Source: Polytrichum commune
Lineage: Eukaryota; Streptophyta; Polytrichopsida; Polytrichales; Polytrichaceae
Direction of reading: 5' to 3'
Assembly: GCA_950295325.1 (NCBI GenBank)
Contig: OX485804.1
Span: 66,564,033 to 66,628,032, forward strand
Length of the DNA: 64,000 nt
Shown: positions 43,694 through 64,000 of the stretch, one piece after another
Numbering within the stretch: position 1 is the stretch's first letter
How the letters are laid out: every line of letters starts with the position of its first letter
Translations under genes and position numbers: made by a program
The notes under the pieces: model-generated
What the model was told of the DNA's origin: nothing
Databases searched by the model: none
The model's input: only the letters and a program-made list of their open reading frames with translations

Positions 43694-43725
43694 TATAAAC
43701 ACTATATTCGTTAATTGGAGACTTT
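43694..43725 (+). repeat. left terminal inverted repeat
   Basis: It starts TATAAACACTATATTCGTTA and runs into TTGGAGACTTT, matching the right end with one difference. The next bases make a hairpin, GAGACTTTGGAAAGTCTC. Further in (43.75-44.22 kb) degenerate palindromes and half-sites of the element's motif (CATCCGTAAA) act as subterminal repeats. Confidence 0.85.
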
Positions 43726-44354
43726 GGAAAGTCTCAAAATAAATTGGACCCGTAGTTTCGGATGCGAATATTGTGAACGTAGGGAACATGGGGAACAATG
43801 GCAACATAATGTTCGAAAGATCCATATGTGATGAATATATATGTTTCTAAATATAGTAATTATTTGGGGGATAATCAAAACTACGCCAACACAATATTCC
43901 AATGTCACAAATTCACAATTATTTTGTATTTTTGATTTTGTATTGAACAAAATTAATGAATCTATAAATAGCCATCTGATTTTATATCTAGGGACTCTTG
44001 GATGCGTATCCCAAACATAACATCTTAGCCAATTGTGGGTGAATTGAACGGCACATCCCAAACGCAACAATATTAAAATAATTTGACAGTGTGTATAAGA
44101 AATTGCAAATTAGCATCTGCAATATAATTATATAGTTTGGACTCCACATCCGTAAACACAAACATATAAAAAACATTTGATAGCGCATGTGAAGTTGGAT
44201 TCCACATCCGTAAATCAATACAATCATGATATATAATTGTAATCTATAAAATTGCTATAAAATGTGTCTAATATAGTATTCGACCCCAATGTCATATATT
44301 TCATGAAAAACCAAGACACATTTCAAATAATTGTGGTCCAACCCTACGTCAATA

Positions 44355-47300
44355 TCATTCTCCATCTTCATCTTCAGCTTCATTTCCATTCTCGACATCG
44401 TTTTCTGCAGCAGCAATACGTGCCAAGTTGTCTTTGGCAAAATCTATATGTTTTTGGGGGATGGTCATTGTCTCTGATTTGGAACCTTTGCGTGGTTTCC
44501 AAGCACAAAGTATGGTATCTGTGTTTATCCATATTGGTTCGTATGCTGAGTCCATTGTCCATTTGAAACCTTTTTTGGTGTCCCACCCTAAATATGTGCG
44601 GAGCACATTTTGATCTTTGGTGCTGGGACGGCAATATTCCACCTCAATTTGATGAAAATTTGGGCTAGTTGGAACAAAATTTGGTGATGACAATGCTTTT
44701 ACCAACCAAATCGGTTTAGGGTGCTCCTCATCTCCAGGACGTACGAGGATCATATACCCTTCGTAGCAATCAACAGCCACACGAAATGATGGAGCCGGAC
44801 GATTACGAGCTGGGCCAACATAATGGTCGTCCGCTGCGAACTCTTCACGGATGTCCCCATTGTCGAAGAACATGGCCTCAGATTCCACGATTGTCACTCG
44901 GCTTTGTGGCCAAAAACCTTGTGTCAAACATGAATGTGTTTCGACATCGGGTGCTAGCAATGCTGAGCGAATGCGATCCCAGTACGTAATCAATGGTTCG
45001 TGGGTATCCCGAACACGCCTTGTGATGTCTTCCTCGCACAATTCTTTCCAATATTGGATGAATCCGGATATACCTTTGATGATTTCTGGTCCATTCCTCA
45101 TGGGGTTGGGTTTGCAAGGCTTCGGCTCCCCATCAGGTAGCATACATTTGCCTTCTTCGTTTTGGCGCCATACGAGTATCCCTTCCTCTGGACCCCAATC
45201 CGGGGAAGTGCACAAAACTTTGAATTGCATGGCCGGCAAACCATCATCACGCATATAGAATCGGAATTGTTGAGCCTTGGTATGGCCCACTAAACGGTCA
45301 CCTCCCTTAAGAATGAATGGTTCGATAAACGCTTTGAAATCGGGCACTTCTTCAATCAAATGCGGGATGACTGGCACATTATCCAAATCCATGTATGATT
45401 TCATGAGAAGAGGAATCGTCGGAAAATCCTCCTCGTGCAACTTCATACTCCAACGTCCAAATGAAGCGTCAATGTCATCATGCGTGTGGCCAACCATCAA
45501 AAAAGACACAAACACTTCTTTGAAAATGCCCTTGGCTACGAGCAATGACCAAAAACAAAACACGTATCGACATTTGTTGTCTTTGGCACAATTGTCCAGT
45601 TGCACATGTAGAGTTGGAGGCAAAGGTTTAGCAAGAATGGTTTGTTCAGGCGGTTCTTGCAGTGACGATAGACATACTTCTTTCCCCTCTAGCACAGCCT
45701 CATAAATCGGTGTTGTTCCACATCCAACAAAAAGAGCGCGAGAGGATGATGTTGGCGGACTCTCAAGATCTCGTAGAAGTTTTGCAAAAGACCCTACGGT
45801 ATGATTGGCGTCGCCTGGATAGAAATCCAAGCCATAATGTGCATACTTGACGTCCACATGGCCATGTGCGATCATACCTGAATTAAGACATACAAATGAG
45901 AAGTACATTCCAATATCATTTATAATAAAGAAATTCAATTTTTCCGCAAGCAGGCCAAGAAAATGAACAAACACTTACGGATGTACATCCGTAACTCTTA
46001 ACGATGAGTATGTGGGTTCGCAAAAAAAATGTGAAAACCAACGAACCTGTGACAGATATTGGGAGCTTGAAATATCCATCTGTAGCCTTTATTTTCCGTG
46101 CATAACAAGGGCACGCAGTCTTCGCATGGTCCATTTTGTCATGAATGATTGTCAAAACCTCATTCGGCCTCATTATCGATAATGCGCGATTCTTGTAGTA
46201 GTCTTGACGGTGTGCCTCTTGGTTGTTGACATGCTCAATGTATTTCCGTTGATGTCTATTGTGCGACTCAGTCCCTATGGGATGTGCATCTCGAAGGCCC
46301 TTGTATTTTTCACAAGCAGAACACCTGGCAAACTTATCCCCAGGCCTCTTTGTAATGTACTCTGCAAATTGTTGATTCTTGATCACACTCAATTTTGACA
46401 ACGAAATCGGCCCACATCCAGCCTTTTCGCCAACCTCATTAACATCCATAAGTATGTTCTTCCATTTTGTCCCTGTAGGCAAAACCATCTGGACAACCTT
46501 TTCCCCCGACGGCAGAGTCCGTGTTTTGTGTGGCATCGCATCTGCTAATGGCATAATGATGGTTGATAGTGTTGCAGTTGCTTGGAGTGTTGCCTCCCTG
46601 GGCTTCTTTGTACCAGAGTTGCCATGGAACCGAGAACGCCGTCCTTGCAGCGAGTAGTTCCGGAACCTATAAAAATCTGCCTTTGAAACTGCATGTATAA
46701 TGTACCATGCCGTGCAGCATACCTCTATATTTTCCAAGGTCACAACCTTACGACCTTCGGCATCAAAGTGCATGTTGCGATGGACTTCAAGTTTCTTTGC
46801 AGATCGCATCCGAAAGTCCGCAAGCCACATCTCTTGTCTCAAAGATTTGATTTTGTCACGGGGAAATAGTTGGCAACACATTTTTGCACAACAATCCTTT
46901 GTTGCTACGGACCTAATAGATGTGTCTCCCAATGTTAGATCTCGACGACGTTGCGTGGGTTCACGGGGCACGCGAACAGAATCATATTTACGCCGACCTT
47001 GTCTAGGACGCATTGTGGCGAACAAAGTCTTTTGTATTTCCTCAAAACGACGTGCATGATTCCACAAGCTGACACCATCGTGAAGAACACTTCGCAACGG
47101 CCATCGACGAAGAGAGAATCTCCAACCAGGAGGTACTTCCAATGGATGTAAGGAGTTCAAAATGCACACCCCAACATCTTCCTCCCCAAGGGGATTTGCA
47201 TCAATACAGTCCATAGGATTTGAGTTCCTACAAACACCATTGGCCACGGGGACGCCGTATCCATTGACTATGACAACATCAAGATCAATCCATTGTTCCC

Positions 47301-47511
47301 GCGAATAACCCTCACATGTTGGTATGAAATCATCCTCTGCATTGGCGACACCAATTGTAGTTTCATGTTCCATAACACCTTCAAATTCGCTAGCATAGCT
47401 TGACGCTTCCGAAGAGAACTCGAATGCACTATCTCGGACGTTGGAATCCATGGCCACTACAAGTGACCCACATGAAGAGTATGTCAAAATATCCCATTCA
47501 ATAAATGTCAT
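44355..47511 (-). CDS. DUF7869-like protein, probable transposase
   Basis: Two exons, 46047-47511 and 44355-45877, join in phase (GT-AG, 169-bp intron) to give 995 aa; an internal Met at 47,451 would give 975 aa and is equally plausible. The N-terminal ~150 residues are acidic and look disordered. The core has a Cys pair (FARCSACEKYKG) followed by a His-rich stretch, then IIHDKMDHAK, LPISVTGMIAHGH, HVQLDNCAKDNK (Asp near residue 583) and VGHTHDDIDASFG (Asp cluster near 622-625). This D, LDN, GHTHxDID pattern is that of DUF7869 proteins and resembles an RNase-H-like (DDE) nuclease core. The C-terminal region (VDCYEGYMILVRPGD to ILCAW) resembles a BAH/Tudor-like beta domain. It is the only gene in the element with a transposase-like core, hence the role; that is inference. 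The intron and upstream region carry the element's palindrome. Confidence 0.8.
45975..45994. promoter_or_regulatory. palindrome copy in the gene A intron
   Basis: TTACGGATGTACATCCGTAA is a perfect 20-bp palindrome, with the core varying from GACGCGCGTC to GATGTACATC. It lies inside the only intron of the DUF7869 gene. Confidence 0.75.
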
Positions 47512-47592
47512 GGATAGTCCTAACGCTTATTGTCAATGAAACACAATGTCAACAATAGTGGATTTCATGGCCTGGAAACAAAGACACATTGG

Positions 47593-48073
47593 TATACGAA
47601 CGCGCGTACGTATATCTCCATGTAACAACATTATCAGTGCAAGCACGCGCATACATATGTCTTTATTTGTTCATAGTCGGCGGAAAGGTCCAGACAACAA
47701 AAACATGACAGTTTTATGGGCGCGCACCCGTAAATCTCTTCGTGGTCAAAGAGGTCAATATCATGCGCAAATGTTTTCGCAAACTATACAACATAGGTAT
47801 ACGGACGTGCGTCCGCAAACATCCGAATGTCAAAAGTCAGTGTTGTGCAAGACACACAGAGGTTTAGGAAACCAAGATGTCCAGGTGCCAGGTTCCTACT
47901 GTGTATTATGAATGTCAAAATATTATACTATGACACATAGGGTGATGTAAGCTTAGGGTTTAGGGATCTTATACCTCCATTGACCGTACAGTCTCAATGT
48001 AATATTCTACATGGCACATAGTGAAAAGTATGGAACCAAAGGTTTGCAGGTTTACGGATGCGCGTCCGTAAAC
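47593..48073. promoter_or_regulatory. four diverged palindromes upstream of gene A
   Basis: Copies lie at about 47,593-47,614 (ACGAACGCGCGTACGT), 47,713-47,733 (ATGGGCGCGCACCCGT), 47,798-47,820 (ACGGACGTGCGTCCGC) and 48,051-48,073 (ACGGATGCGCGTCCGT). The first is about 80 bp upstream of the Met at 47,511, a suitable place for promoter binding. Several changes are compensated on the other arm, for example GGGCGCGCACCC. Confidence 0.7.
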
Positions 48074-48227
48074 CTCTCTGTACCTCATTACTAGCACAAA
48101 TAGGTTTAGGTTACTGGACGTGAGTCAGAAAATTTTCATGACAATACAGTCTCGTTGGTATACTATACATGGCAAGTGGTCATGATGTCAGCTCAGGTGC
48201 AATACCGAACAATGGAACAAAAAGGTG

Positions 48228-48545
48228 CAAAAGTTTACGGACGCGCGTCCGTAAACCTTAATGTACATGAAATAGCTGAAGTATAATTCTCACAACAATA
48301 GATATCCAATCAAGCAAGAGGTTTAAGGTTTACGGACGCGCGTCCGTAAACCTCAATGTAAATGAAATAACTCAAGTATAATTCTCACAAAAATACATAT
48401 CCAATCAAGCAAGAGGTTTAAGGTTTACGGACGCGCGTCCGTAAACCTCAATGTACATGAAATAGCTCAAGTGCAATTCTCACAGAAATAGATATCCAAC
48501 CAAGCAAGAGGTTTAAGGTTTACGGACGCACGTCCGTAAACCTCC
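48228..48545. repeat. 95-bp tandem array, one palindrome per unit
   Basis: Palindromes begin at 48,234, 48,329, 48,424 and 48,519, exactly 95 bp apart. The spacer has TGAAATAGCTCAAGTATAAT and ATATCCAATCAAGCAAGAGG in each unit. Three copies have the perfect ACGGACGCGCGTCCGT core and the fourth has one change. The array lies 0.7-1.0 kb upstream of gene A. Confidence 0.95.
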
Positions 48546-49754
48546 GTGATTTGCGGCGCCATAATAGGACCATTTCACCAGGAACGATACTTGCCATAAA
48601 CAAAAATCAATCACTATAAGGATCCAGACAGTGCAATCCACATAAAATTGGCTCCACTAATGGGTTTATGGCTTGGAATTTAGTGTTTAGGGTATAAAAG
48701 GTCCATTGCAATAGGATCTGTACCTGCACGAAATAAACATCCAGAACACTACAAGGGTCCAAGCAGCGCAACCCACATCTGAGATGCAAAAAGAGTCCCT
48801 TGGTGGAGGGGTGTCCCCTTAAGTACTGATCGTTTCCCTTGGATCCGTTTTCCAACATAGGATACTAGCCACCATCTACGTCCTATAAATAAAAACCTAA
48901 CATTACTACATTCCGTGTGCCAGCCTTACAATGGAATGTGTATTCATAGTGGACAACATGCATAGACGATGAGTCCACATAATGACAAAGCAAAAGGCAT
49001 CTACGTATTTATGGTGGACAACAAAGAAAATAGGCTAATAATATATGAGCATTGAACATTGTTGAGGGTGGTTTATAATATTGAAGTACCTAATATTGAG
49101 AGGTCATTGTAGAACTAGGAGACAGAACATTATAGTGTCGTGTGAAACATCAACCACAACAACAACAATAGTACATGGAGTATAAAAATACGTGTCATTC
49201 AAAATTAAACTAGCATCTATTTTATTGTTTTGCATACGATGTAATGATATTCACTCCAATATCATGTTATCTCCTCTCATCTAGCATTTAAACTAGTAAT
49301 TACATTTGCCACCACCCTACCATCCAACCCGTTTAATTTACCCACTTTTACACACCTATACATAATTATACTAATACGTACACAAACTTTGAGCGCCTAG
49401 ATGCCATGAAAATAGCACATCTATTGTCATAGGCACTATGGGTTGCTTTAAAATCAATATTCTCAATTTCCTCTCTTAACTTTAGGGCCCCCTTCAATAC
49501 ATCAACATTTATTTCAAAAAAAAAAATACTAGCATTCTTAATGTACTATACGTGAGACAAAAAACAATTTTTAGTACCCCATGTACATTATCTACAATAT
49601 TGACTCAAACAATAGCAGTTGTTGTTCTAAGTAACATTATGAGCCCAACAAACCATAATGGAGAGAAGGGGAGGGTAGGGTATCCAAATATTATAAAGGC
49701 AAGCAATTTTAAGTTGGTGACAAAAGGGGGATACTCTCATTAGTTCATACGTGG

Positions 49755-49825
49755 TACCCTAAATCCTAAACCCTAAACCCTAAACACTATACCCTATACC
49801 CTATACCCTATACCCTATAACCGCC
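49755..49825. repeat. telomere-like CCCTAAA tract
   Basis: AAATCCTAAACCCTAAACCC followed by TAAACACTATACCC and several CCCTATA units. Two to three perfect plant telomere units (CCCTAAA) grade into a variant. It lies in the middle of the transposon, so it is an interstitial tract or a telo-box-like element, not a chromosome end. Confidence 0.75.
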
Positions 49826-52139
49826 CACCCCTGAACAAACACAACGACATACGGTACGCATGGTTAACTGAATAACTCCCAATACATGTGTAGCCTTAAG
49901 TGGAAGTAATTCAAAACTATATGACTACCTTTAAATTTTGTAAAAGAAAACCATAAACATTTCAAATGTGAAGCAAATTTAGGGGTAACCTTACCTTTCA
50001 TTTTTTTAAATCTTTCTTTGGCTTTAAACCATTTGCTTTAAACATATACTTTTGATGAAAGGTTTTGAAGATCGTATATTGGTATTCTATAATCGAGTCC
50101 TAAACACAACTCACCACCGAAAGAAAACTCCAAATATAAACAAGTTTGCTACTACTTATAAGCGATAATACAAGCTGAGGCCTATGTGTGGAAGGATTGG
50201 ATGGATCCGAAAGGTTGTTTAATGTACAAGAGGGATGTACATTCAACACATACCCATGCATTTTGTTTTAATACAAGCTTAGACCTATGTGTGGAGGGAT
50301 TGAATTAATCCGTAATGTTGTTTAAGGTATTACAAGCATATGAATTCTCCCCATATCTCGATGTTTCGGTTTTGTTAATTGCGTTTCACAACTTATTGCG
50401 ATAATTGAGGGATTCACAAGTATTTCTTGGCAAAGTTTCATGAGAATTTGTGGCCAATTGGTATATTGCCCCAATTGCATTTGAATCCCACCTTTGAGAA
50501 GAAAAAGAATTCTTATACTGAAGTTAATCAACAAGACATCCTTTTATTGAATATTATTATTATTCTCGAAATATAGAGTCCCCTCCATAGCTCGGGGGGT
50601 GCACTGTACTAAACATGTACGAGTTATACGTGAGTGCACAGGAGGGGTATTGATTTGGACCTTGCCGTATTGCATATACATATGGTATACATGTTATAAT
50701 TTATAGTTACGTACATATATGGAAGGCCTTTAAAAAGTATAGAATAATTGTACTTGTATGGTATTGTTACTATACTATATATCATAAGTGTTCATATTGG
50801 ATAAGTTTTCATAAGGTTTGGTTTGTTGGGAGAGTTTATAGGATGCGGAGGAAGTTTGGTAATCGTTGGGTGGAGTATAGGGATCCATTTGACTTGATGG
50901 ACCGTCCATCAAACGTGGAGATTGGTTTATGTTGGTATCAAAAGGGGCTAACAACAAGTGGACATATGATCTTATTGATCATTCCATGGTAGACTTCGAG
51001 ACAATAATTGCATTTGTATACTTATGTTAATGACTCTCGGGGGGGGGGGCAGTCATTGGTTGGAGTAGCAATATACGTGCAAACAAATGATAGGGTATTT
51101 TAAAAACATGGGGGCAAAAAATTATAAATGGACTTAAGAGTAATATAGGGTATCAAAAATGGCACTGGACATCTTTAAAGTAGTATAGGGTATGGAATAA
51201 TTGGTAATTTGGAATTATAAGTAATGCAAGCCATTTTTCTATTAACCCAAAGTAGAAATTTATATAATGATAGCATGTGAAAAAAAATAAGAGAATTGAA
51301 AGTAATACCCCCCTATATCCTTATTTTTTTAACACACTGCCCCCCCGAGTAATGACTAATATATATGAATGGATGTTTTTTTGTGTATACATATTGTTGC
51401 TTGTATATTTATTGTTGCAATTGTATGTGTATTACTTCATTTCACAAAAAATCACTTGTATATATTAGGGGGTTTTTAGAGTATGCAGTGAACGCACGTG
51501 ATTCTAGGTTTTAATGAAAGGTGCTCCCCCACTCTCCATAGAGGCCACACTAGAAATTGTAGTTAGTTTCTCTCATTGTTTGGAGTTCCAAAATGATATT
51601 ATTATTATTATTGATGTCATTTAATTGTTGACAATGACATAATAATTTACTCAACCTCACACCCTAATATAATTTCCTAAAATAATGAATACTTTCTAGA
51701 GCTCGTATGAATATTTCACTCATTATCAAAAGTGAAGAGAAGAGGCAACGAGATGGCTCATTTTATATTTAGAGTGACATTTAGTGTGACTTTTAACTTG
51801 CCTTAGCATAAACATAAGATGTTATTATGACATAATATGATAATAAAATCACCAAACTAAGTATAAATTAAACCCCTATTTCAATACCAAATATAGACCA
51901 GTAGGGTGATGCCACGTAAGGGTATAGGCCGGCGATTGGGCGCGACGTTTGGGGTAGGGACACGTGGAGGCACGCCATTGTTTTAGGGTTCCAAGTACTC
52001 CAGCACCCTTTCGCCCTCGCTCTTTGTGCTTTTCCTTCCTTCTCTATCATCTCTTCCTTCCGTTCCTTCTACTGTTGCTCTTGCTTCTCTTGCTTTAGGG
52101 TTATAGGGTTTCAAAGTACACCAGCTCCCTTTTGCCCTC

Positions 52140-52445
52140 CTCTTCGTGCTTTTGCTTCCTTCTCTTGCAACTCTTGTTTATCTTGTTTCTCTTGTTTCTC
52201 TTGTTTCTCTTGCTCATCTGCTCTTGCTTCTCTTGCTCATTTGCTCATCTTCTCTTGCTCATCTGCTCTTGCTCATCTTCTCTTGCTCATCTTCTCTTGC
52301 TCAACTTCTCATCTTCTCTTGCTCATCTGCTCATCTTCTTTTGCTTCTTTTGCTTCTCTTCACTTTCTTCTCTTGTTTCTCTTGCTTCTTACCCTTATCT
52401 TCACTTTCTTCTCTCTCTTCTCTTGCTTCCCTTGCTGGTCTTGCT
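52140..52445. repeat. pyrimidine-rich microsatellite
   Basis: Irregular repeats of CTTCTCTTGCTCAT and TTGTTTCTCTTGTTTCT make a nearly pure C/T strand with scattered G. Leucine/serine-rich open frames through it in three phases are by-products. Confidence 0.9.
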
Positions 52446-52489
52446 TCTCTTTCCTCACAATGCAAAACTCATTCTTATTGGTCAATTGT

Positions 52490-52501
52490 TGACGCGCGTC
52501 A
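52490..52501. promoter_or_regulatory. variant short palindrome
   Basis: TGACGCGCGTCA shares the GACGCGCGTC core of the element's palindrome without the ACGG/CCGT shoulders. It may be a chance match or a reduced site. Confidence 0.4.
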
Positions 52502-53278
52502 GAGCTAGAGTAAGTTCTCCTTGTTTGCTGCTCATTTGCTTATTAGCTCATTAGCTCATTAGTAAGTTTTGCTTGCTGCTTGCTTGCTTGCTGCTCATTA
52601 GATCATTAGGATGCTCATTGTTGCTTGCTACTGCTCATTAGGTTGTTTTCAGTTGTTGATCTCAGTTGTTGCAAGGGTAATTAGTGTTTCAGATGTTGCT
52701 CATTAGGGTTTCAGTTGTAGCTTCACCATGTAGTTCATTATATTTTTTGCATACAAATCAATAGTTTCCTTTCACTTGTGTTGCATGAATCTGATTTATG
52801 AGCAACTTTTTTGAGTAGTTCTCAATGTTGAATCATGCATGTGCACATTGAATTACTAGAGGTTTCTGACCTCAATTTTATTGTTCATTTGCAGTTGGTA
52901 TTAGCTGCAGCAGGAGCAGCTAGTTGTGGTTTAGGAGCAAACACTCTAGAAAGGTAAGTTTTTTAGAACATTGCAATTGCATTTTGTATGATTGCAATTT
53001 TGGGTTGTTGTGGTTTAGGGCTTAAGGTTAGCATGACAGAATGTGAGATTCCAGTTTCAAGGAATTCTGAATTTGTTTAGTACTTTGTCTATGGCTACAT
53101 TCTAAGAATCATTTAGTTATGGACATGTCAGTGTTCTGAAAGTGCCTTATGTTGTCAATCTGCAGTGCAGTGTTTGCTATTGCAGTGAAGTAAAATTGCA
53201 TTCTTATTTGGAGGGCAAAACCATATTGGACGACAAGGTAAAGTCCCGAAAAACACGGAGCATTAATGAAAACATTGG

Positions 53279-53850
53279 AATACGCAAACATTACAATAGC
53301 CTTTATAATCCTCAAAGTTTACGGACGCGCGTCCGTAAACTTTGTGGATCTTTGTGTAGGTGAGAGACAAGCCTCTCAAACAACATATTACGCAAACGAA
53401 GCCAAATATTGTAATATTAGGCATATTAAAATAGCCTTTATAATACTCAAAGTTTACGGACGCGCGTCCGTAAACTTTGTGGATCTTTGTGTAGGTGAGA
53501 AACAAGACTCTCAAACCGCATATTACGCAAACGAAGCCAAATATTGTAATATTAGGCATATTAAAATAACCTTTATAATACTCAAAGTTTACGGACGCGC
53601 GTCCGTAAACTTTGTGGATCTTTGGGTAGGTGAGAGACAAGCCTCTCAAACAATATATTACGCAAACGAAGCCAAATATTGTAATATTAGGCATATTAAA
53701 ATAGCCTTTATAATACTCAAAGTTTACGGACGCGCGTCCGTAAACTTTGTGGATCTTTGTGTAGGTGAGAAACAAGACTCTCAAAAATATATGTAGGTGA
53801 GAAACAAGACTCTCAAAAAAATGTAGGTGTGAAACAAGACTCTCAAAAAA
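53279..53850. repeat. 135-bp tandem array, one palindrome per unit
   Basis: Perfect palindromes begin at 53,318, 53,453, 53,588 and 53,723, exactly 135 bp apart. Each unit also has TGTGGATCTTTGTGTAGGTG, ACGCAAACGAAGCCAAATAT and TTAAAATAGCCTTTATAATA. The array decays into short TGTAGGTGAGAAACAAGACT repeats at its right end. It lies 0.3-0.8 kb upstream of gene B, mirroring the 95-bp array upstream of gene A although the spacers are unrelated. Confidence 0.95.
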
Positions 53851-53904
53851 ATATTAACCGTAACTTGAATACATTGATATTTACCACCATACTATCTTTG
53901 CGAA

Positions 53905-54051
53905 GTTTACGGACGCGCGTCCGTAACTTATAGAGATATTTGAGTATATAATATACGCGTTATGCGTATTTGGAAGAAATGTATCTTTTCATTTGGATCC
54001 AAAAATGTAATTGAGACAATTTGGAAAACTTTACGAACGCGCGTTCGTAAA
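53905..54051. promoter_or_regulatory. two palindromes just upstream of gene B
   Basis: Copies at 53,905-53,926 (ACGGACGCGCGTCCGT core) and 54,030-54,051 (ACGAACGCGCGTTCGT, changed symmetrically on both arms). The second ends 55 bp before the start codon at 54,107, so it is probably in the 5' UTR or core promoter. Confidence 0.8.
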
Positions 54052-54106
54052 GTATGATCTATATCTTTTGCCAAGAATTCTAACTTATCTATCTTATCAT
54101 TTGCAA

Positions 54107-57100
54107 ATGGCATCTAAAAAGAGACATGCAATTGAGATGTTCGCAGAAGCTCTCATTCCTCCGCTACCAGAAGCCATCAAAGACATAAGTCCCAACGACC
54201 ATTACAAGCCACAAGATGAAATTGTGGATAATTGGACAGTATTGGTAGAAAAGGACGAGAAAGAAATATTTGTGCTTAGATTTGCATATCAAATGAAGAC
54301 GGACATAGATGAAGCTGAGAAGTGGATAAAGCTTAAATCGTGGACAGTAGAGTGTGCAGTGGCACAAGGGGATTATGTAGTAATAGACCTTGAGAAGAAA
54401 GAAGATCGGGTCACTTTCATTTTGCACGAATCCTACCACCCCTTCAACAAAAATGAGTGTGAGAATGCTAGTACAGATGCGGCTTGCTTCAATCTCCAGA
54501 CGGAGTTCCAAGACTATGCATGCAATGCACCTTGGACGGGTAAGCGGCTTGGACGACTCTTGAACAATGTAACAAGAGTAAATGGAGCCTTGCTAGAGGC
54601 CAGAAAGGGGAAAGATAAGAAAAAACAAGTCGTTCCTGAACGACCTAAGCGTGTGCCTAAACCAGTGCCGGAATCCTCAAGGCCCTCGCAGAGTGGTGCA
54701 TCAAGAGGGAGCAGACAGGCGAGTAAACGCTCTCACTCGCAGATGGACTCTGGACTAACAGAGGGTCCGGATGTCAGCTCTACACTGACTGTCGCTCCAC
54801 TCCTCAAAAAGGGTCAACGCCCTGACGCCGAACTCTCAACAAAAATATTCCAAGAGTTCGATGAGAAGACGAAGGGATGCTGGCCCCTTGGCAGGTATTT
54901 TACTTTCGAAGTAGACGTCTACAAATGCCACAAGGGCACCGAAAGTATGAATACCAGAGCAAAAGAAGAAAGCGGTGTATGGTGGCAAATGAACAACATC
55001 ATGAACAACCCCAAGTTTGACAGGCAAACCATTTGTGTGACACCAAAGGATCCTATCGTTGAAGTCAACGAAAAAAATTGGCCGATTCTCAAGAATGGAG
55101 AGTTCTACATTGTCGACGGCCAACATAGTGTAATGGCTGCAAAAGCTCTCCTTGAAGACGACGAGTGGAAAAGCCCATTAAAGGAGACAATCCGATATTG
55201 GAAGGCATTTGTCGTGCATTCCAAGGACTCGAACCAACTCATAGCAATATCTGCCTTCATGAACCAGGGGAATAAAGTGAGGCAGTTCGAGGCTTCATGG
55301 GCAGCCAACATCGTGGCTGGGAGGACCTTGTGGGTGGAGCACGAATGTCCCCCAAAAGAAAGAGATAATGCTGTCGTGAAGAACCCAAAATGGCAGGTAT
55401 GTTACTCAAATAGATTTACGGACGTGCGTCCGTAAATGTGGCCCTTCTCCTCCCACTGCTTCAAATATTTGAATTTAATTTGTACTGAATTCAATGTTCT
55501 GATTTCTTGCAATTCGCGCCTCTTGCAGACATTCAGCAATGCCATATTGACAAAGTTCTCGAGTATAGACATGAAGACAAGCGGCATGAAAACAGTGCAT
55601 GAATTAAAAGGCGAACTCAAGCTCATCACTGCAACAGAAGAGACGTGGTCAATATGGTTGCGACTTTTCGATGCCCACAACAACGGCGACCTTGTCAATC
55701 CAGATACGGAGAACACCTACAAGAGCGACTCAAAAGTTAAGGTACCACCAATCCTGCGAGAGTTCTTTCGTCCCCTCCAAGGATTGATGGACTCGGAGCT
55801 GTACAGGGCAGCAGAACACATTCTTCTAGAAACTCCTAGAAGAACTCTGCCCTATCCCAAAATCTTTCTGAAGCGGCCGAAGCACATGAAGCCATCCACG
55901 TACCACATTAAGGAATGGTGCGATTACAGAAAGAAGAAGACCATGGCTGTAAGGGAGATTAGCAAATTGCTACCCACCCACAACCTCATTAATAGTGATG
56001 GTGAGATCGTGTGGGAGAATTGGAGGAAGCTGAAGGGTGAATACCACATCAATGGCGTCTCAATGCGAGCTTTGATAAGAGGGGCATCATCCTTCCTTGC
56101 CCAACGATCCAGAAGGAACGAAAAGAAGGGATCCATCGACGAGAGGGAGACAGGGTTGTATGTTCACTTTCTCGATAGGAAAAAGAACGCGAAATTTGGA
56201 GGGTTTGCAAGATTCTGCACGGTCGCAAAGGGCATGAAGTTCGGCGCATGGGACACCCATGCTTCAAGAGCCTCTGTGAGAGATGACCCCAGGGGTTGCC
56301 CTTTCGCCATTTTTGATTTTCGTGCAATTCCCGGAGCATGGAAGCAAGACGTTGCGGGAGCACCCTTCTACGAGCCCTTCTTAAAAGCCTTCAAGAGCTA
56401 TCGCTCGCCTGCCCTCTTCGAGCCTCATGTGTGGTTATGGATTGTAGAGCAAGAGAGGTCCACATCCATTGTCCATCTGTACACATCAACGATGGACCTC
56501 GAATACGATATGTACCACAGCACCTACATCCCAGCGAAGACAGAAGGGATCACTTTCATTCAAGAGGCAAGGGGGGTGAAGCAAGTGGGAGCTGTGCAGC
56601 TTTATTTCTTAACACGCAAGTCTTCCCCAACTGGGCGATTGCCCATTAAACCACACGAGGTGTTCAGGAAAGTCTATTCGTTGCCGCCACCACATCCCAA
56701 GGAGCTTGTTGAGGAGACAATGCATGCAATCTATCCGGCGTTCGAGCTCCGGATGGACTTTTATATAGGGGTCTTGAAGGCTTTAACTGTCATGAGTGAG
56801 ACAGTTTACAACGTCTTCGGAGGCACGAAGTTTATGTATGCAGCACTGGTGAGTATTTGTTTGTCTTTCAACCCACCTATCTTTTGCATAGTTATTTTAC
56901 GGACGCGCGTCCGTAAAAACCCAGTATCAGGTGCATGTGAATTTTACGACCGTGCGTCCGTAAAATTGTCCAACTTTTGAGTGGTGGTTTTACGGACGCG
57001 CGTCCGTATAACGTGTTGACATCTAGCCTCATTTATATGCAATCACCACTATTGTTCTTATCTAATTTTCTTGTTATGGTCCAGATGCTTGGCTTGCAGG

Positions 57101-58515
57101 TGAATTCTTTTGTGCAGGATTCCGACTACGATGACGCCCATACTCACAGGGTAATGGCCTCCAAAATGGATATCCAGGACATCATGGACGTCCTTACACC
57201 CCATCCTGTTGTGCCTCTTTCTTCTAGAGAAGAGGCAATGCCCGGAATGGAGACAGACCCTGAAGAGGACCAAGATCCCAGTTCCCCAAGAGCGCAACCC
57301 TCCACACAGGAGCCTTTACACGGCCTTGTTCGCGACCCAATTAATCCAAGTGCTTTCCTGCTGGGAACAGACGACACGGATGCGCAGGAGGCACGCGTGA
57401 ACTTCACTCCGATAAGGGTCCCTCATACCCCTGTTCTCTCACCTTTTGGGACTCCCACCTCTCGAGTTGGATTTCCCTCAACTGCGGGTCCATCTCGTGC
57501 TCCAGGAGTTATGGCCGAGAAGGATGTGGACCTTGCGGCAAAAGGCGGATGCACCGCTTCATCTGGAGGGGGGTCTCAACATTCAGATCTACCCCCTATG
57601 GAGGGGAGGGATGTGCTGGAGTTGATATTGAGGCCTGATATCTCTCTATATCGTGAGAGTCGACGAAAGAGGAACAAGACGCCATACAACGAATACCCTG
57701 AAGGCGCGGTCTTGGAGCTCTCCGATGAAGACGAGGATGAGATTAGGATTCACAATGCCATCTCTGCCTTGCCTACGGAACCTGGCAAGGTGAAGAAAGA
57801 GCCGATGTCAGTGTCCGAATTGGACGAGAAGATGGAGAGGCGAATGAAGGAAGAGCTTGACCAACGGCTTCGAGAAGCTAACGAGGAGCACGCCAAAAAG
57901 ATGGCCGCCATCCAAGCTGAGATGGAGCAAGCTAGGTTGGAGTCTGCTCGAAGGCACGCCGATCTCATGGCCCAAAATCAACAGTTCTTGGCCCAAAGTC
58001 AACAATTTATGAGCCTGATGCAGAGCTTGCAGGCAAGACCCCCTGTAGTCTATACAGCTCCCGATGCCGTCATGTCTATGCCCCCCACTCTCATGCGGCC
58101 TCCGTCTAGTAGCCATGCGGTGTATATACCCGAGCATGCTTATCCAGCCCCCGCGTTGATTGTCCCGCCCTCTCCCCTTGTTGTCGCCACTCCAGAGGAG
58201 CCCTCCTCTCATCCTACAGGAGTGGAGGAGATACCGGCACGTGACATGGCGGGTGCCGCCGAGACAGATGTCAATGAAGGCAATGCCCCCATCGGCGATG
58301 AAGATGTACATATGCGGGGCAGCCAAGACTCCACAGATGAGGATCAGCCTTACGTGGATACTCAAGGGTCGCAAGCGGCTGGAGACACCTTGTTGGTGGT
58401 CGAAGATCTGGACAATTTTGCGGACGCGCGTCCGGATCCTGTGCCCATGACGGGGCCAGGTGAGGGAGGCACTGCTGGCGCGGACCTCGCCCTTGAAGAG
58501 GTAATCAACCTTTGA
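54107..58515 (+). CDS. ParB-like/DNA methyltransferase-like fusion protein
   Basis: Three exons, 54107-55396, 55529-56848 and 57085-58515, all phase 0 with GT-AG borders, give 1346 aa. An upstream in-frame Met at 54,011 is possible, but its frame begins within a palindrome, so 54,107 is preferred. Residues 1-190 are unrecognised; 195-280 are Lys/Pro/Ser-rich. The box FYIVDGQHSVMAAKALL (DGQHS near 337-341) and the later AFMNQGNKVRQFEASW resemble ParB/DGQHR-type domains. Across the exon 2/3 junction, FELRMDFYIGVLKAL, then VYNVFGGTKFMYAAL and MLGLQVNSFVQDSDYDDA (about 835-890), resemble the KPxEL, VxDxFxGxGTT and AAxxLGRxxIGxE order of N4/N6 DNA methyltransferases. A catalytic [DNS]PP[YFW] box is not visible, so activity is doubtful. 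The C-terminus has an acidic patch, a charged coiled coil (SELDEKMERRMKEELDQRLR) and a Pro/acid-rich tail. Both introns contain palindromes. Confidence 0.75.
55415..55436. promoter_or_regulatory. palindrome in gene B intron 1
   Basis: ACGGACGTGCGTCCGT with symmetric TTT/AAA shoulders lies within the 132-bp first intron, about 19 bp after the donor site. One base departs from perfect symmetry in the centre. Confidence 0.8.
56896..57010. promoter_or_regulatory. three palindromes in gene B intron 2
   Basis: Copies at 56,896-56,917, 56,943-56,964 (ACGACCGTGCGTCCGT, two changes) and 56,989-57,010 fall within a 236-bp intron, spaced 46-47 bp apart (about four and a half helical turns). Confidence 0.85.
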
Positions 58516-58546
58516 GCATGCCTCCCACGTTACGGACGCGCGTCCA
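58421..58546. promoter_or_regulatory. palindromes at the end of gene B
   Basis: CGGACGCGCGTCCG at 58,421-58,434 is translated in frame as Ala-Asp-Ala-Arg-Pro-Asp, and a second copy (ACGGACGCGCGTCC, 3' shoulder lost) lies at 58,530-58,546, just after the stop codon. They could act on RNA or DNA at the 3' end of the gene. Confidence 0.7.
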
Positions 58547-58888
58547 AAACTTCCTTGTCTGCCTCCTTCGTGGCGTGTGTATATTATCGAGTTCAATCCT
58601 CGACTTCGCCCGGCGGGTGGATACAATTTTGTTAGCATAGATTCCATTAACTTCAACAGATATTTTTTGCGACAATGTATATTATTCACCAAATGTATAT
58701 CACCAATTACATTAATACCAATTTTTCAACTGGATGGTTCGGATTATTTTTGGCCTTATAATTTGTGTTGAGTTTATCCATGCTTGTCAATTGGTTTTCT
58801 TGAGTAGTACCATTTACCTAGATAGAATGTTCCATCACAGGGTCCGTCGGAGATATGTCGCAACCCCGCGGGAAAACCAAGCGCGCCC

Positions 58889-59608
58889 ATGATGAAACCG
58901 TTCATAATATTTGACCTCAATGGGGTGCTTTGTCAATCCAAACATATCTCGAATAGTGCGTCCAAGGGGCCCTTCCGTAGTCCACAAGACATGGATTACG
59001 GCGGACATTTCGATACTCTCATAAATAAGAAGGTTGTACGTGCCCGCCCCGGTTTGAGGAGCTTCCTTCGTGAGGTCCTTGGCTTCGCCCATGTCATCAT
59101 CTGGAGCTCTATGCTCATGGACAACACGAAGGCCATCGTCGGTTTCCTTTTCCGAGAACTCGCAATGCCATGCTTGCTTCTCGGTCAAGAACACTGCGAT
59201 GACCTCTATGACCGTAGTGGCAATATTGTACCCAAGGTCGGAGGGGGTCGTGGGCCTCAATTCTTAAAGGTCCTGAGGAAGAACCTCTGGGTGGGCGTCC
59301 CTATGTTGGAGGGGGTTCCCCACGGTTGTTGGCCCACCCCGGATAACACACTCCTCATTGACGACAGCCCGGCAAAGAGTATTCTCAATCCCCCGGGCAA
59401 TTGCATATTCCCGGATCCTTGGGAAAGCGATAGAAATGACAACTTTCTAGAGAGTGAACTAGGACCCTACATTAGGAGGCTTGCCTATCACCCCGGAAGT
59501 GTCCCGGATTTTGTGCTCTCCAACCCAATTGGCAATAGGCCTCTAGGCCCACAAGATGAGGAATTTAGGAGATTGTACGGCTACGCTAGACTCAATAAAT
59601 TAATATGA
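58889..59608 (+). CDS. FCP1/NIF-like HAD phosphatase
   Basis: 239 aa with the order of an FCP1-like (NIF) HAD domain: motif I FIIFDLNGVL near residue 6, RARPGLRSFLREVL, motif II VIIWSSM, and motif IV TLLIDDSPAKS near 155. In classical FCP1 motif I is DxDxT/V; here the second Asp is Asn, a form common in plant DLNGxL proteins, which may change or remove phosphatase activity. The size covers the domain only, with no BRCT domain. A good acceptor (ATCACAG) precedes in-frame codons from about 58,851, so a 5' exon is possible. The gene follows gene B by 370 bp on the same strand within the element and may act on RNA polymerase II C-terminal domain or another phosphoprotein; that is inference. Confidence 0.75.
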   Translation: MMKPFIIFDLNGVLCQSKHISNSASKGPFRSPQDMDYGGHFDTLINKKVVRARPGLRSFLREVLGFAHVIIWSSMLMDNTKAIVGFLFRELAMPCLLLGQEHCDDLYDRSGNIVPKVGGGRGPQFLKVLRKNLWVGVPMLEGVPHGCWPTPDNTLLIDDSPAKSILNPPGNCIFPDPWESDRNDNFLESELGPYIRRLAYHPGSVPDFVLSNPIGNRPLGPQDEEFRRLYGYARLNKLI

Positions 59609-59700
59609 AAACTTTGATGATTTTGGGTTTGTACTTGGACTCTCCATGTAAATATCTAACATTTCTCCCCTTATCTTTGTAATGTATTTTTGTGTCTTAG

Positions 59701-60597
59701 TTGCCTCACCAAGCACCCAAAAGTGTCGTCAATGGCATGTCTGCATCTCAGGCAGACACCGGCTCCCTTTCCCTTGGTATGAGCGACGTTGCAATGCCTT
59801 CACTATTCCAATATTCGGCCGTCGATGCTGCCTCTGCTGTTGATTACTCCAAAGACTCCGGGTTTGAAGACGGAGTCGTGGATAGCCCTCCTGCAAAGGT
59901 TGCAAAACTCAATTACTCTCCAAGTCCATCTCCATCTCCCCTCCGCAGTGAGAAGCACGTCCGTAACCCACGGTCGACCAGACGCCTTTGCATGGATGAA
60001 CCCCAAATTGATGTCCCGGCGTTTGCGAACGTCCCTCTCGGGCTTGTATCTACACCCGTCGATGTCCCAAAAGCTCTAACCAGCGCCCCAAAGGCGAAGG
60101 TGCCCAACTATTGGCATTCTCAAGTTTTTCCTTGATGATTTCCGTGTATTAGTGCATTTCAACTTCTTGGGTTTTTCGGACTTCCATCCGTAACTTGTAA
60201 CCACTTATACTAACCCACTTCATTATATATATTTATGGTCATTGTTCAGACCCCAATGTACACGAATGTGGGCCGGGCATCATCGACTTCGTCATTGGAT
60301 AGGCGAACACTGAAGACAGCTTCTTGCGAGTCTGATCGTTGTTTGGCCCTACGGAAGAGTGCAAGACGTTCGGTTTCCCAAACGCATTCGTATTCCACTT
60401 ATTCGGAAGGGGGTCGGCAAATATGGGCAAATGGCGCATATTCGGGGTCAACAAATAAACAAGGTTACAGCCGCGGACCCGAGATCTTTAGAGCCATGGA
60501 GGCCATGAAAGCAAAGGAACGTGAAACGGCCGTAAATGCTAATAATAGTATTGCAAAAGCAAAAGTAGTGAGTCGTAATCATGATCCGAACGTATAG
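59701..60597 (+). CDS. Ser/Pro-rich hypothetical protein, probably two exons
   Basis: Two open blocks follow the phosphatase: 59,701-60,135 (after a TCTTAG acceptor; a first Met near 59,734) and 60,250-60,597 (after GTTCAG). The first has a low-complexity YSPSPSPSPLRSEKHVRNPRS stretch and repeated VP-rich segments; the second has SSTSSLDRR and a basic helix ending in a stop at 60,597. They join in phase if GTGCCC at about 60,099 is the donor, which is a weak site. Alternatively they are separate, or belong as 3' exons to an alternative form of the phosphatase gene. Composition resembles gene B's tail more than the flanking DNA. No known domain. Confidence 0.4.
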
Positions 60598-60879
60598 GCT
60601 ATATTAACATACATGTAGTTGTGGAATTATGTTTCTAGGACTTTCGCCTAATATTGGATATTCCACTTGCATTTTGTACTTCAACCCCTATTCAATAAAT
60701 ATGATATTGATTTTCCATATGCAAATGTTTTCATATATCCCATTTTCTTATTGTTAATGTGTAGTTCCATGCATTTGAGTCTCTTATTTGTATCCAAAAT
60801 TGGGAACATAGCATATTTTTAGTGTTTTCATTCCTATAAATGTGAAAGCCACGTCCTTAAATAGTCTCAAAATTAACAA

Positions 60880-60911
60880 AAAGTCTCCAAATAACGAATA
60901 TAGTGTTTATA
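60880..60911 (-). repeat. right terminal inverted repeat
   Basis: Read on the minus strand it begins TATAAACACTATATTCGTTA and continues TTTGGAGACTTT, matching the left end. Just outside, the strand reads CACTA before TATAAAC, giving a short direct repeat, so the exact end could lie up to three bases further out. A degenerate half-site (CACGTCCTTAAA) lies just inside. Confidence 0.85.
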
Positions 60912-61985
60912 GTGATGTATACAACAAAATTAAGTAAGTTCATAGGTTTTATAGTAACATAGGGTTATGATTATAAGGGGCAAAGGACTTTAAATATGTT
61001 ACATGGATATAGGATGCTTGATGATTGGGATGCATTAGTATTGATTGATGAATTGTATGAGGTTCAATCAATAATCCTTATGGATTATGTTTATACACCC
61101 CCTATTTTGGATGTTTTTAGGCTCCTCCGCAGTGAAAGCCCATCAATGTCAATGAATTTCTGTCCATAACCTTGTCCTTAAATTGAATGTTTGGATTAAT
61201 GTTCTTTGAAGTCCCTAAGACATGAACTTTTCTTTTCCATTTCTATTTTACTTGAAATATTATTGTACAAAAAAATATATGCAAAAGCAACCAAACTCAT
61301 TAGGCTAAGTGGCATGTAAAGCAACTTGTTAACTTATAGCTCCAATGGAACTCTATTCTGCATCCTCTATGATAAGAATCAATAATGCAACGAGTATTGA
61401 AATCAACATATATGGCTCATTATTTTAATTGTTATAGGAAATCTTTGCATTATGTGTTTGCAAAATACTTGAGTCTTGTGACTTCGCCATGGTAGATGAG
61501 AATACGATCTAAGTTTCTTGTTCTTAATACCATGTTTTGTCGCTTGTATGCGGAGGATGCCTATTCTACTCATAAGATTTCCTATGTCAATCATTGTTAA
61601 TGATTAGTGATGCATGCAATGAGTTTTTGAATTGCATGGGAACTCCCACAAAAACATGTGGCCATGTTATTTATGTTGGGAGAATTAGAAGGAAGGGAGA
61701 TTTGATTATGAGCACAATTAGACGAGGAGAACAAATGAAACGTGCTATTTTGAAGGCTTATTTTCTATTGGCGTACCGTCCATCTTTTTTTGAGAATTTC
61801 AGGGCTTTACCAAGATCAAGAAAATCTCAATTAGAATGAATTTTACAACTGTGATTTGTAGAGGTGTTTAAAATAATTTGTTTGTACTAAGTGAAATTGG
61901 GAGTGTCGGATTTGTGTATGTTTACAAAAGTCATAGAATATGAAATGTTGGCAAAATTGATGTAAAATGTAGGTTTTATTCCGTC
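60912..61985. other. AT-rich gap between the element and the NLR gene
   Basis: About 1.1 kb with no supported gene. A short frame at 61,594-61,839 (TIRRGEQMKRAILKAYFLLAYR) has no recognised domain. The promoter of the downstream NLR gene should lie here. Confidence 0.5.
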
Positions 61986-64000
61986 ATGGCCGTCGAGCTT
62001 CGGCGAGTATTGGTGAAGCAACTGTCAATGCTTTGGCAGTTCATCAGCATTTGCTTCATATACTTCTTCACACTTGTTCAGAAAGAGGCACCGCATGCAT
62101 GCGAGTTTTTGGAATTTTTGCAATGGAAAGAGGAAGAATTGATCAAAATGCAAACTATTCTTCGACAAGATGATGTATTGAATAAGCGACAATGCACAAA
62201 GCTTGTTGCCAAGCTTTCTACAACCATGCATAGTATTATTGAGATGATCACATTCATCAAGCAATCCTTCGAAGTTAAGATGGTGGTGATGGAGTTACAT
62301 CGTATCATACAAAAAGGGGGAGTATTGGTGAATGAATGTGGGAGTGGAGATTGGTGTTGTGCAACTCTTTTCCAAATAAACAACAAAGAGGCCTTTCGGG
62401 AACTCGTGTCTGATTTGGAGTGTTGTTGGGAGGCAGTGCACGAGATATACTCGACAAACCATCCAAATCCACAAAACTACACAATGTGTACAGATTTGAA
62501 TGTGGCTACTTTGAAGGAAGTTGAAGGCGATGAACAAGACTTGTTGAACAAACTTGAAAATGTGCTTGAGGACTCCAAAGAACACAAATTAGCAAAGCAT
62601 TTGTGGAAGAGATTGAAATGTGACTTGCAACAAGTGAAAGGCGCAGAATTGGATGCTTTGGAAATACCTAAAGATTTTCCAAAACCTAGACTTGGGGAAC
62701 TAATGGGTACGGGTGCATTTGGATCAGTGTACGAATCAAAATGGTTGGGATTGCCAAGTGCAACAAAAAAGTTGATTGTTCCAGAGGATTTGTCTGGTTT
62801 TCGCAAAGAAGTTGGGATCTTGGCAGGCTTGAGCCACCCAAACCTCATCAAATACTTTTGTTGTGGAATAGACGAAGAATGTAAGGAGTTGTATTTGGTG
62901 ATGGAGTTGATGGACATGAGTTTGACAAAAATGTTGGTGAAGCTCAATAAGACACTCCTACCATATGTTATTGCAATTGATGTTATGCTTCAAATTGGAA
63001 GTGGCATGTGGTATCTTCACGACATGCATGTTGCCCATCTTGACTTAAAGCCGGACAATGTGCTTTTAAGCTCCATGACCATTGATGGAGCAAAGGGTAC
63101 TAGGCCTTCTCATTATAATGTCAAATTGATTGATTATGGCACTTCTAAAATGGAAGTTCAAAGCAAACCGCAAAAACAAAAACATGATTGTATTGTTGGT
63201 ACACCAAGGTATATGGCACCTGAGCAAAGGGAAATAAACCTCACTCATATGGCATGTCTTTTCCAAGCGGATGTATGGTCTTTTGCTATGACATGTTCAG
63301 AGATCCTTTCCCGGAAGGTACCATTTCATCACACACATGATATGAGAGAAATTCTTCCAAAAATAAAGAAGGGTGAAAGGCCGGAGCTACCTATCAATTG
63401 TGGGGAGCTTACCGAATTGATCGAGGAATGTTGGAGAGAGGATCCCTTACAAAGGCCGACATTCTCGGATATTTGCAAGAGACTTATAGGCTTGAAGAAA
63501 ATGTTCATGAAGGGAACATATTTGAGTGATATGGTTCCGCAATTTGATGGAGTTAGGAATCTTTTTCCAAAGTTGTCAACAACGTTGAAAGGTTGCAAAG
63601 AAGAAACGAATCACAGTAGTCGGAAGGTAAATGCCACTTCCATTACAGTGAGCTCACTATTTAAGTTGTTCTCAATTTATTAATTGCTTTGATTTATTAT
63701 TGTGGATGTTTGAAGTTGAACATATTTTTTTGGTGGTAAGATATAATAGAGTTTATTGATATATTTATGTGTTGTACATATAGGTGTTTGATGGAACATT
63801 ACTAAATGATCCAACGGTGGTTAGTCTTGAGAACAACCTTGCAAGGGTGAAAGATCGCCTCAAAGAAGTGAATACCTTGGGTATTGTGGGTATGGGTGGA
63901 ATAGGGAAGACCACATTGGCAAAGGCCATATTTGATGATGTGAAGTCCACATACGATGCATCATGTTTTGTGGGGCAATTGAAAAGTAGGAGTTTGCTTG
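61986..64000 (+). CDS. Protein kinase-NB-ARC (PNL-type) immune receptor, 3' cut
   Basis: An NLR in which a protein kinase precedes the NB-ARC nucleotide switch; the class (PK-NBS-LRR) is described from mosses and would act in intracellular immune sensing. Exon 1 (61,986-63,627 region, donor after AGTCGGAAG at 63,626) encodes 547 codons, exon 2 starts at 63,784 in phase 0 and runs off the window. Residues 1-230 are a helical region with many Leu and Cys. The kinase (about 235-510) shows GTGAFGSV (G-loop), ATKKL (Lys), HLDLKPDNVLL (catalytic loop), LIDYGTSK (DYG instead of DFG), GTPRYMAPE and a RPTFSDICKRL end. Exon 2 shows the P-loop GIVGMGGIGKTTLAKAIF. The LRR region lies beyond the window. 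All key kinase residues except the DFG Phe are kept, so it may be active. Met 61,986 is the first in frame after AT-rich DNA. Confidence 0.9.

What the first reader, a model, noticed from the sequence alone, without database searches (positions are those of the whole stretch)
43694..60911. A 17.2-kb DNA transposon with 32-bp ends and at least three intact genes
The two ends match at 31 of 32 positions in inverse orientation and enclose every copy of a special palindrome and all genes of foreign character. Complete reading frames imply a recent or active element. Neither the terminal sequence nor the gene set fits hAT, MULE, CACTA, Harbinger, Mariner, Helitron, Maverick or KDZ as I know them.
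Basis: partly seen in the sequence, partly recalled or inferred. Interest (0 to 1): 0.95.

Follow-up and report, generated by a model that had tools for sequence, protein, structure and literature searches.

The report
Giant plant jumping gene, self-regulating parts
This is a young, repeatedly copied 17-kb jumping gene in a plant-like genome that carries its own transposase and a second large protein, and it is sprinkled with about twenty copies of a short palindrome that is probably the docking site by which the element controls itself.

Summary
The element is 43698-60907 (17,210 bp) with 28-bp inverted ends; the outer TATA on each side is its 4-bp target-site duplication. Of 32 end pairs found in the same 408-Mb genome, 30 have exact 4-bp duplications (26 different words); 26 spans are 17.1-17.4 kb. 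The two exceptions carry swapped duplications. A second whole copy is 99.7% identical, and one insertion has a paralogous empty site.

It most likely has two genes. Gene A is a DUF7869 transposase. The plus-strand ORFs join in frame through three phase-0 introns into one 1,597-aa protein (DGQH motif, NIF-phosphatase domain) under purifying selection.

The 4-bp duplication, size, conserved acidic motifs and divergent partner gene match published giant Sola(-1) elements. The novel part is a 22-bp palindrome: 878 exact genomic copies, clustered in promoters and introns, kept in a subfamily whose accessory protein is 77% identical. It fits the published TACG-N10-CGTA operator of DndB. My reading: the accessory protein binds it to regulate the element.

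The parts
43694..43697 (.). Target-site duplication, left copy (TATA)
60908..60911 (.). Target-site duplication, right copy (TATA)
43698..60907 (.). Whole element, 17,210 bp
   Evidence: Ends fixed by copies with other flanks and TSDs; second whole copy 17,327 bp, 99.7% identical
43698..43725 (+). Left terminal inverted repeat, 28 bp (AACACTATATTCGTTAATTGGAGACTTT); GAGACTTT-GG-AAAGTCTC hairpin-like repeat at 43718-43735
60880..60907 (-). Right terminal inverted repeat, 28 bp, 27 of 28 matching the left
46047..47451 (-). Gene A (transposase) coding exon 1; start codon 47451 or 47511
   Evidence: 39% identical to N-terminal part of L111 protein; splice donor
45878..46046 (-). Gene A intron, 169 bp, GT-AG, holding a 20-bp perfect palindrome at 45975-45994
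   Evidence: absent from the intronless L111 ORF
44355..45877 (-). Gene A coding exon 2 with most of the DUF7869 domain (stop included)
   Evidence: Pfam PF25273 E 4.8e-40; 51% identical to L111; 67 of 85 scored relatives stop-free
47593..48540 (.). Palindrome cluster upstream of gene A (8 sites with 6 or fewer mismatches, 3 exact), partly as 95-bp tandem units
53318..54051 (.). Palindrome cluster upstream of gene B-E (6 sites, 4 exact), partly as 135-bp tandem units
54107..55396 (+). Gene B-E coding exon 1 (B), with the DGQH motif
   Evidence: dN/dS 0.095 against L112; 95 scored relatives at 76-100% identity
55397..55528 (+). Intron 1 with palindrome 55415-55436
55529..56848 (+). Gene B-E coding exon 2 (C), no Pfam match
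   Evidence: dN/dS 0.11
56849..57084 (+). Intron 2 with palindromes 56896, 56943 and 56989
57085..58500 (+). Gene B-E coding exon 3 (D), coiled-coil-like stretch (by eye) and one palindrome-derived site at 58417
   Evidence: dN/dS 0.26
58501..58840 (+). Intron 3 with degenerate palindrome 58529-58550 (4 mismatches)
58841..59608 (+). Gene B-E coding exon 4 (E), NIF-phosphatase-like domain, stop included
   Evidence: Pfam PF03031 E 4.4e-13 on the ORF; dN/dS 0.17
49756..49822 (.). ACCCTAA-type (plant-telomere-like) tandem repeat inside the element, length-variable between copies

Best explanation
A giant (17.2-kb), recently active TIR transposon of the Sola type, most likely Sola-1. Gene A (DUF7869) is the transposase: it recognises the 28-bp ends and inserts the element with a 4-bp duplication at loosely AT-rich sites. 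Shown: shared ends, duplications, paralogous empty site, conserved two-gene content. Inferred: catalysis by gene A. The second, divergently transcribed gene encodes one 1,597-aa accessory protein, inferred to bind the 22-bp palindrome TTTACGGACGCGCGTCCGTAAA as a dimer and thereby to regulate the element's own transcription (repress it, or protect it from CpG-methylation silencing). Shown: the palindrome array, its places and its conservation. Inferred: binding and its effect.
For: 30 of 32 end pairs with exact 4-bp TSDs, 6 of 6 in the 77% subfamily; paralogous empty site with a single ATGG; 99.7% identity of a second whole copy. DUF7869 at E 4.8e-40 with shared acidic motifs HDKMD/IDGMD, QxDN, GHTH(E/D)DID among aligned relatives. 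In-frame phase-0 splicing of B-C-D-E in two subfamilies and dN/dS 0.095-0.26. Palindrome: 878 exact copies, control 0; 49 of the 50 listed places beside a gene-B copy; 15 sites in corresponding places of L112, where intron 1 is otherwise only 53% identical. Published Sola traits (PMC10741241 passages) and Sola1-1_Ec32 with an opposite-strand ParB-like gene (PMC12477816 passages). DndB, a DGQHR-motif regulator, binds TACG-N10-CGTA (PMC4507180 passages), which the consensus palindrome contains. A distant DUF7869 locus (L079) has, on the opposite strand, an ORF with VDGQH then RPLQGL in the order of exons B and C.
Against: No Sola1 sequence was available for comparison. Profile searches of the accessory protein or genome gave no match in the element for DndB, DGQHR, ParB_N or N6_N4_Mtase; hhalign to a methylase of the same genome was negative. 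Both AlphaFold models failed (pLDDT 32.8 and 30.6), so neither an RNase-H nor a ParB fold was seen. The L079 similarity is weak (E 0.012 and 0.002 as single comparisons). TACG-N10-CGTA is exact in only 13 of 24 variants counted. Symmetric double changes in the palindrome are 7, asymmetric ones also 7, shuffled mean of symmetric 3.0, reached in 33 of 2000 shuffles: modest. No transcript data: the splicing is inferred. L082 has S for the second acidic residue.
Confidence: 0.7

Rival explanations
1. A separate, unnamed superfamily: DUF7869 elements are not Sola but their own lineage that also makes 4-bp duplications and acquired a ParB-like partner.
For: DUF7869 is named in no paper of the held library; no Sola sequence could be compared; terminal sequence AACAC is not one I can match to a published Sola end.
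Against: TSD length, size range, acidic motifs and the divergent ParB-like partner all agree with published Sola/Sola-1.
Confidence: 0.2
2. The palindromes are bound by the transposase or by a host protein, not by the accessory protein; they act as enhancers of transposition or as host-read promoter sites.
For: The tests for a ParB/DndB domain in the accessory protein were negative; clusters lie 5' of both genes.
Against: Transposase exon 2 is 92-93% identical in the 77% subfamily, so conservation does not single out a partner; the published parallel and the DndB operator point to the ParB-like protein.
Confidence: 0.3
3. The palindromes are functionless tandem-repeat or hairpin-derived sequence spread inside the element.
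For: Many sites lie in tandem units of 95, 135 or 53 bp; one lies in coding exon D.
Against: Sites outside tandem arrays, in introns, are kept in a 77% subfamily while the intron around them diverged (53% identity); unit lengths differ while the 22 bp stay.
Confidence: 0.15
4. Misassembly or chance inverted repeats.
For: One assembly only; no second accession.
Against: Copies with the same ends, different flanks and own TSDs; empty site.
Confidence: 0.01

Closest known systems
Sola1-1_Ec32, giant Sola-1 transposon of Ectocarpus (PMC12477816, passages read)
   Same: Giant (21.5 kb) DNA transposon; second gene on the strand opposite to the transposase with a ParB-like domain.
   Different: There the second protein (1,104 aa) has a DNA methyltransferase domain; here none is detected, and a coiled-coil-like region plus NIF-phosphatase-like domain follow. 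The passages read name no palindromic target.
Sola superfamily in general (PMC10741241, passage read)
   Same: 4-bp TSD, DDD transposase, some over 15 kb, TIRs of 11-1124 bp, known in moss.
   Different: Most are 2-9 kb; sequence relation of DUF7869 to Sola not tested.
DndB regulator and its operator (PMC4507180, passages read)
   Same: DGQHR-type motif (here DGQHS); palindrome TACG-N10-CGTA in its own promoter.
   Different: Bacterial DNA-phosphorothioation regulator; no profile homology found.
En/Spm (CACTA) TnpA system (recalled)
   Same: Second element-encoded protein and many short CpG-bearing sites.
   Different: Subterminal 12-mers, 3-bp TSD and CACTA ends there; internal 22-bp palindromes, 4-bp TSD and AACAC ends here.

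Membership tests
Sola / Sola-1 | 4-bp target-site duplication | tested here: met
   30 of 32 pairs, plus 6 of 6 in a subfamily
Sola / Sola-1 | DDD transposase | tested here: inconclusive
   Three conserved acidic motifs; structure model failed
Sola / Sola-1 | TIRs between 11 and 1124 bp; size 2-9 kb, some over 15 kb | tested here: met
   28-bp TIR, 17.2 kb; ranges from PMC10741241
Sola / Sola-1 | Sequence homology to Sola1 transposases | not testable with these tools
   No Sola sequences held
Ginger1/Ginger2 | TGTNR termini; CCGG-type 4-bp (Ginger1) or RTATAY 6-bp (Ginger2) targets | tested here: not met
   Ends AACAC, 26 different AT-rich words; definition from PMC2836005 passages
hAT, MULE, CACTA, Harbinger, Tc1/mariner, piggyBac/Kolobok, KDZ | Their TSDs (8, 9, 2-3, 3, TA, TTAA, 8 bp; recalled) | tested here: not met
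   4-bp, variable word; only DUF7869 in gene A
DndB / DGQHR / ParB_N | Profile match (PF14072, TIGR03187, PF02195) | tested here: not met
DndB-type operator | TACG-N10-CGTA | tested here: met
   Consensus palindrome; 13 of 24 variants counted
N6/N4 DNA methyltransferase | PF01555 match or profile homology | tested here: not met
   No Pfam match to exon C, exon D or joined C-D stretch; hhalign to L113 probability 0.4%
NIF/CTD-phosphatase-like (HAD) | PF03031 above cut-off | tested here: met
   49.7 bits against 21.8; TIGR02251 29.4 bits, below its cut-off 139; activity unknown

The most novel reading that the evidence does not exclude
Giant Sola-type transposons carry a parS/operator-like control system of their own: a ParB/DndB-like accessory protein that reads a dedicated 22-bp CpG-rich palindrome repeated about twenty times in the promoters and introns of its own element, so that each family marks and regulates its own copies, perhaps in a methylation-sensitive way.
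Probability: 0.4. Interest if true: 0.8.

Novelty: new variant of a known kind. Interest (0 to 1): 0.58.

Why it matters
The Ectocarpus paper proposes that ParB-like accessory proteins of giant algal transposons bind and mark their own element; the passages read name no target site. Here a similar layout in a plant-like genome comes with an obvious candidate site, hundreds of identical sites and many stop-free gene copies, so the proposal becomes directly testable by binding assay, footprinting and methylation data. It also ties the Pfam family of unknown function DUF7869 to a mobile element with measured ends and 4-bp duplications.

Tried and rejected
Structure prediction of the exon-B ORF alone and of the L111 transposase aligned with the two window exons gave useless models (pLDDT 32.8 and 30.6), so no fold search was run. 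PDB sequence searches gave nothing or hits I judge to be chance (interleukin-2 at best E 0.0016; three unrelated at E 0.44 or worse; a toxin-component entry at E 0.24; succinate-CoA ligase at E 0.91). Other weak profile hits judged chance: YEATS in B (E 0.021), BrxC in the coiled-coil-like exon D (PADLOC E 0.0026; NCBIfam E 0.039), DUF6551 and DUF1015 at the DGQH motif (E about 0.1). Viral-contig scans for the transposase and exon B found no relative; the prokaryote-genome scan found one (L111), read here as a eukaryotic contig binned into a cyanobacterial genome.

A methyltransferase reading of exons C-D came from a motif-I-like string at the exon junction; the profile tests were negative, so it is not claimed. 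DndB homology is not claimed for the same reason. The ends of the second DUF7869 family (L088 and others) do not lie within the 1.5-kb flanks held, so its TSD is unknown. The species was not established; one search for a moss with seven pseudomolecules found only Potentilla. A claim of novelty of the palindrome rests on no exhaustive literature search: DUF7869, 0 papers; Sola1, ParB, transposon: 682 papers with two of three terms, 12 listed, only PMC12477816 with both Sola1 and ParB.
Full report
Observation. The two ends match at 31 of 32 positions. Searching the window's own genome (407.8 Mb, 64 contigs) with 301 bp of each end gave 41 left-end and 40 right-end rows; the tool scored only 40 of about 800 candidates each, so these are lower bounds. 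On the same contig, in the right orientation and within 60 kb, 32 of the 41 left-end rows find a right end and 9 do not; 26 of the 32 spans are 17.1-17.4 kb, the others 7.4, 18.3, 19.3, 32.7, 33.2 and 36.5 kb. The flanks show exact 4-bp duplications in 30 of 32 pairs, with 26 different words, biased to A at the first position (16 of 30) and T at the last (16 of 30). In the window the word is TATA. The two failing pairs (C7:31.46-31.49 and C7:31.68-31.71 Mb, in opposite orientation, about 190 kb apart) carry ATGC and CATT crosswise, as expected if recombination between inverted copies turned the stretch between them around, or if the assembly did so.

One insertion (C5:27.9) has a paralogous empty site: its joined flanks match an uninterrupted stretch of L013 over 482 aligned bases at 83%, with a single ATGG at the junction. 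Weaker spanning matches for C6:40.42 and C3:6.37 are gapped or mismatched at the junction and are not counted. A second whole copy is 99.7% identical (50 mismatches over 17,189 aligned bases). The element is real, young and multicopy.

Family structure. The exact 28-bp terminus occurs 109 times forward and 109 reverse, control 0. Six copies of a subfamily whose exon B is 76-78% identical have the same terminus and exact 4-bp duplications in 6 of 6 cases; they were chosen from the listed places. Transposase exon 2 beside such copies is 92-93% identical, so the transposase is better conserved than the accessory protein. DUF7869 has 1,491 first-look candidates, 150 scored, in this genome, including a second abundant family with an open frame of about 690 aa. 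The group of L082 and L084 is 29-30% identical to the window protein. L079 (not in that alignment) has on the opposite strand an ORF with VDGQH and then RPLQGL, the two landmarks of exons B and C (E 0.012 and 0.002 as single comparisons).

Genes. Gene A, minus strand: two exons split by a 169-bp GT-AG intron. The exons align one after the other with a 963-aa intronless protein on L111 (39% and 51% identity). Pfam: DUF7869. The acidic motifs are HDKMD/IDGMD, QxDN and GHTH(E/D)DID; the first is missing from the truncated L084 ORF and L082 has S in the second. Exon 2 is stop-free in 67 of 85 scored relatives, and in 34 of the 39 at 99% identity or more. Gene B-E, plus strand: the ORFs join in frame through three phase-0 introns in the window and in L112, giving 1,597 and 1,588 aa; dN/dS per exon is 0.095, 0.11, 0.26 and 0.17. 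dS falls from 1.5 and 1.4 in B and C to 0.71 in D and 0.41 in E, and intron identity rises from 53% to 60% to 80%, so the right part was probably exchanged between subfamilies later. Among the 32 best matches of exon B (98-100% identity), 21 have no stop. Domains: DGQH motif in B (by eye), no match in C, a coiled-coil-like D (by eye), NIF phosphatase in E (49.7 bits, cut-off 21.8), with DLNGV where I recall that active members have a second Asp.

Palindrome. TTTACGGACGCGCGTCCGTAAA, within 6 mismatches, occurs 22 times in the window (8 exact): 8 sites upstream of gene A, 6 upstream of gene B-E, one degenerate site in gene A's intron, one, three and one in introns 1-3, one inside exon D and one weak site at 60173 near the right end. 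Genome-wide there are 878 exact copies against 0 for the reversed pattern. The tool listed 50 places, all on chromosome contig C1; 49 lie beside a gene-B copy. L112 has 15 sites in the corresponding places. The tandem units around the sites differ (95, 135, 53 bp) while the 22 bp stay. Of the changes at CpG positions, 20 of 21 are of the deamination type in 23 variants counted (3 degenerate ones left out), which suggests cytosine methylation. Double changes are symmetric 7 times and asymmetric 7 times, one-sided 46 times; symmetric ones average 3.0 in shuffles, reached by 33 of 2000: modest support for selection on the dyad. L111 and the eight other DUF7869 loci examined (L079-L085, L088) do not hold this palindrome in the stretch held.

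Link to DndB. DndB, a DGQHR-motif regulator placed in the ParB superfamily (PMC10853773, passages), binds two palindromes TACG-N10-CGTA in its own promoter (PMC4507180, passages). The consensus palindrome has TACG and CGTA in exactly that register; a random palindrome would have TACG in the one required register with chance 1 in 256, before allowing for the operators one might have compared. It is exact in 13 of 24 variants counted. Profile homology to DndB, DGQHR and ParB_N was tested and not found. I use this as a lead to function, not as membership.

Comparison with known systems. Sola elements are described as DDD transposons with 4-bp duplications, TIRs of 11-1124 bp, 2-9 kb with some over 15 kb, found in Physcomitrella but apparently not common in flowering plants (PMC10741241, passage). 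The 21.5-kb Sola1-1_Ec32 carries, on the strand opposite to the transposase, a gene for a ParB-like plus DNA-methyltransferase protein; [quoted passage not shown] The present element agrees in TSD, size and opposite-strand partner. It differs in having no detectable methyltransferase, in the added coiled-coil-like and phosphatase-like parts, and in the palindrome array. Ginger is excluded by termini and targets; other superfamilies by TSD length (recalled) and domain.

Mechanism proposed. Shown: mobile unit, ends, 4-bp duplications, two conserved coding units, palindrome array conserved in place. Inferred: gene A cuts and inserts; a dimer of the accessory protein reads the palindromes and sets the level of both transcripts, possibly by blocking methylation-based silencing. 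I put the element assignment at about 0.7 and the palindrome-reading model at about 0.4. A direct comparison with Sola1 sequences and a gel shift would decide both.

Noticed in passing
G000 C7:31455329-31491846 and C7:31679065-31712294 (L016, L062, L006, L038): Two composite copies in opposite orientation carry each other's TSDs (ATGC/CATT), as after an inversion by recombination between copies, or an assembly inversion.
   Followed up: partly
L111 (CADCWO010000071.1): A contig filed under an uncultured Synechococcales genome encodes a 963-aa DUF7869 transposase, about 40-51% identical to gene A; probably a eukaryotic contig in a cyanobacterial bin.
   Followed up: partly
L088, L090-L108: A second DUF7869 family with an open frame of about 690 aa, nearly identical in many copies; its ends lie beyond the flanks held.
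   Followed up: partly
L113 (G000 C1:9660800-9663200): A 577-aa frame with an N6/N4 DNA methylase domain (E 1.1e-7); frames of the same length at C4:44111740 and C5:16865322, and many weak matches to the same Pfam family elsewhere.
   Followed up: partly
G000 contigs C10, C12, C23: Small contigs with above-cut-off ParB_N and (C10, C12) methylase matches; possibly bacterial contigs in the assembly.
   Followed up: no
window 49756-49822: Telomere-like ACCCTAA tandem repeat inside the element; an indel of 14 bases there separates two copies.
   Followed up: no
G000 C3:55654251-55661667: A 7.4-kb copy with both ends and an exact TSD (CAAT), apparently an internal deletion derivative; exon 2 of gene A is still open.
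   Followed up: no
window 61944-63680: Protein-kinase gene just outside the element (Pfam E 6.4e-41).
   Followed up: no
window 9789-10188 and 38201-39031: Tandem repeats with units of 133 and 218/184 bp outside the element.
   Followed up: no
L033 position 1245; L041 position near 312; L010 position near 2134: Related or inverted extra termini close to full copies, a sign of other family members or fragments nearby.
   Followed up: no
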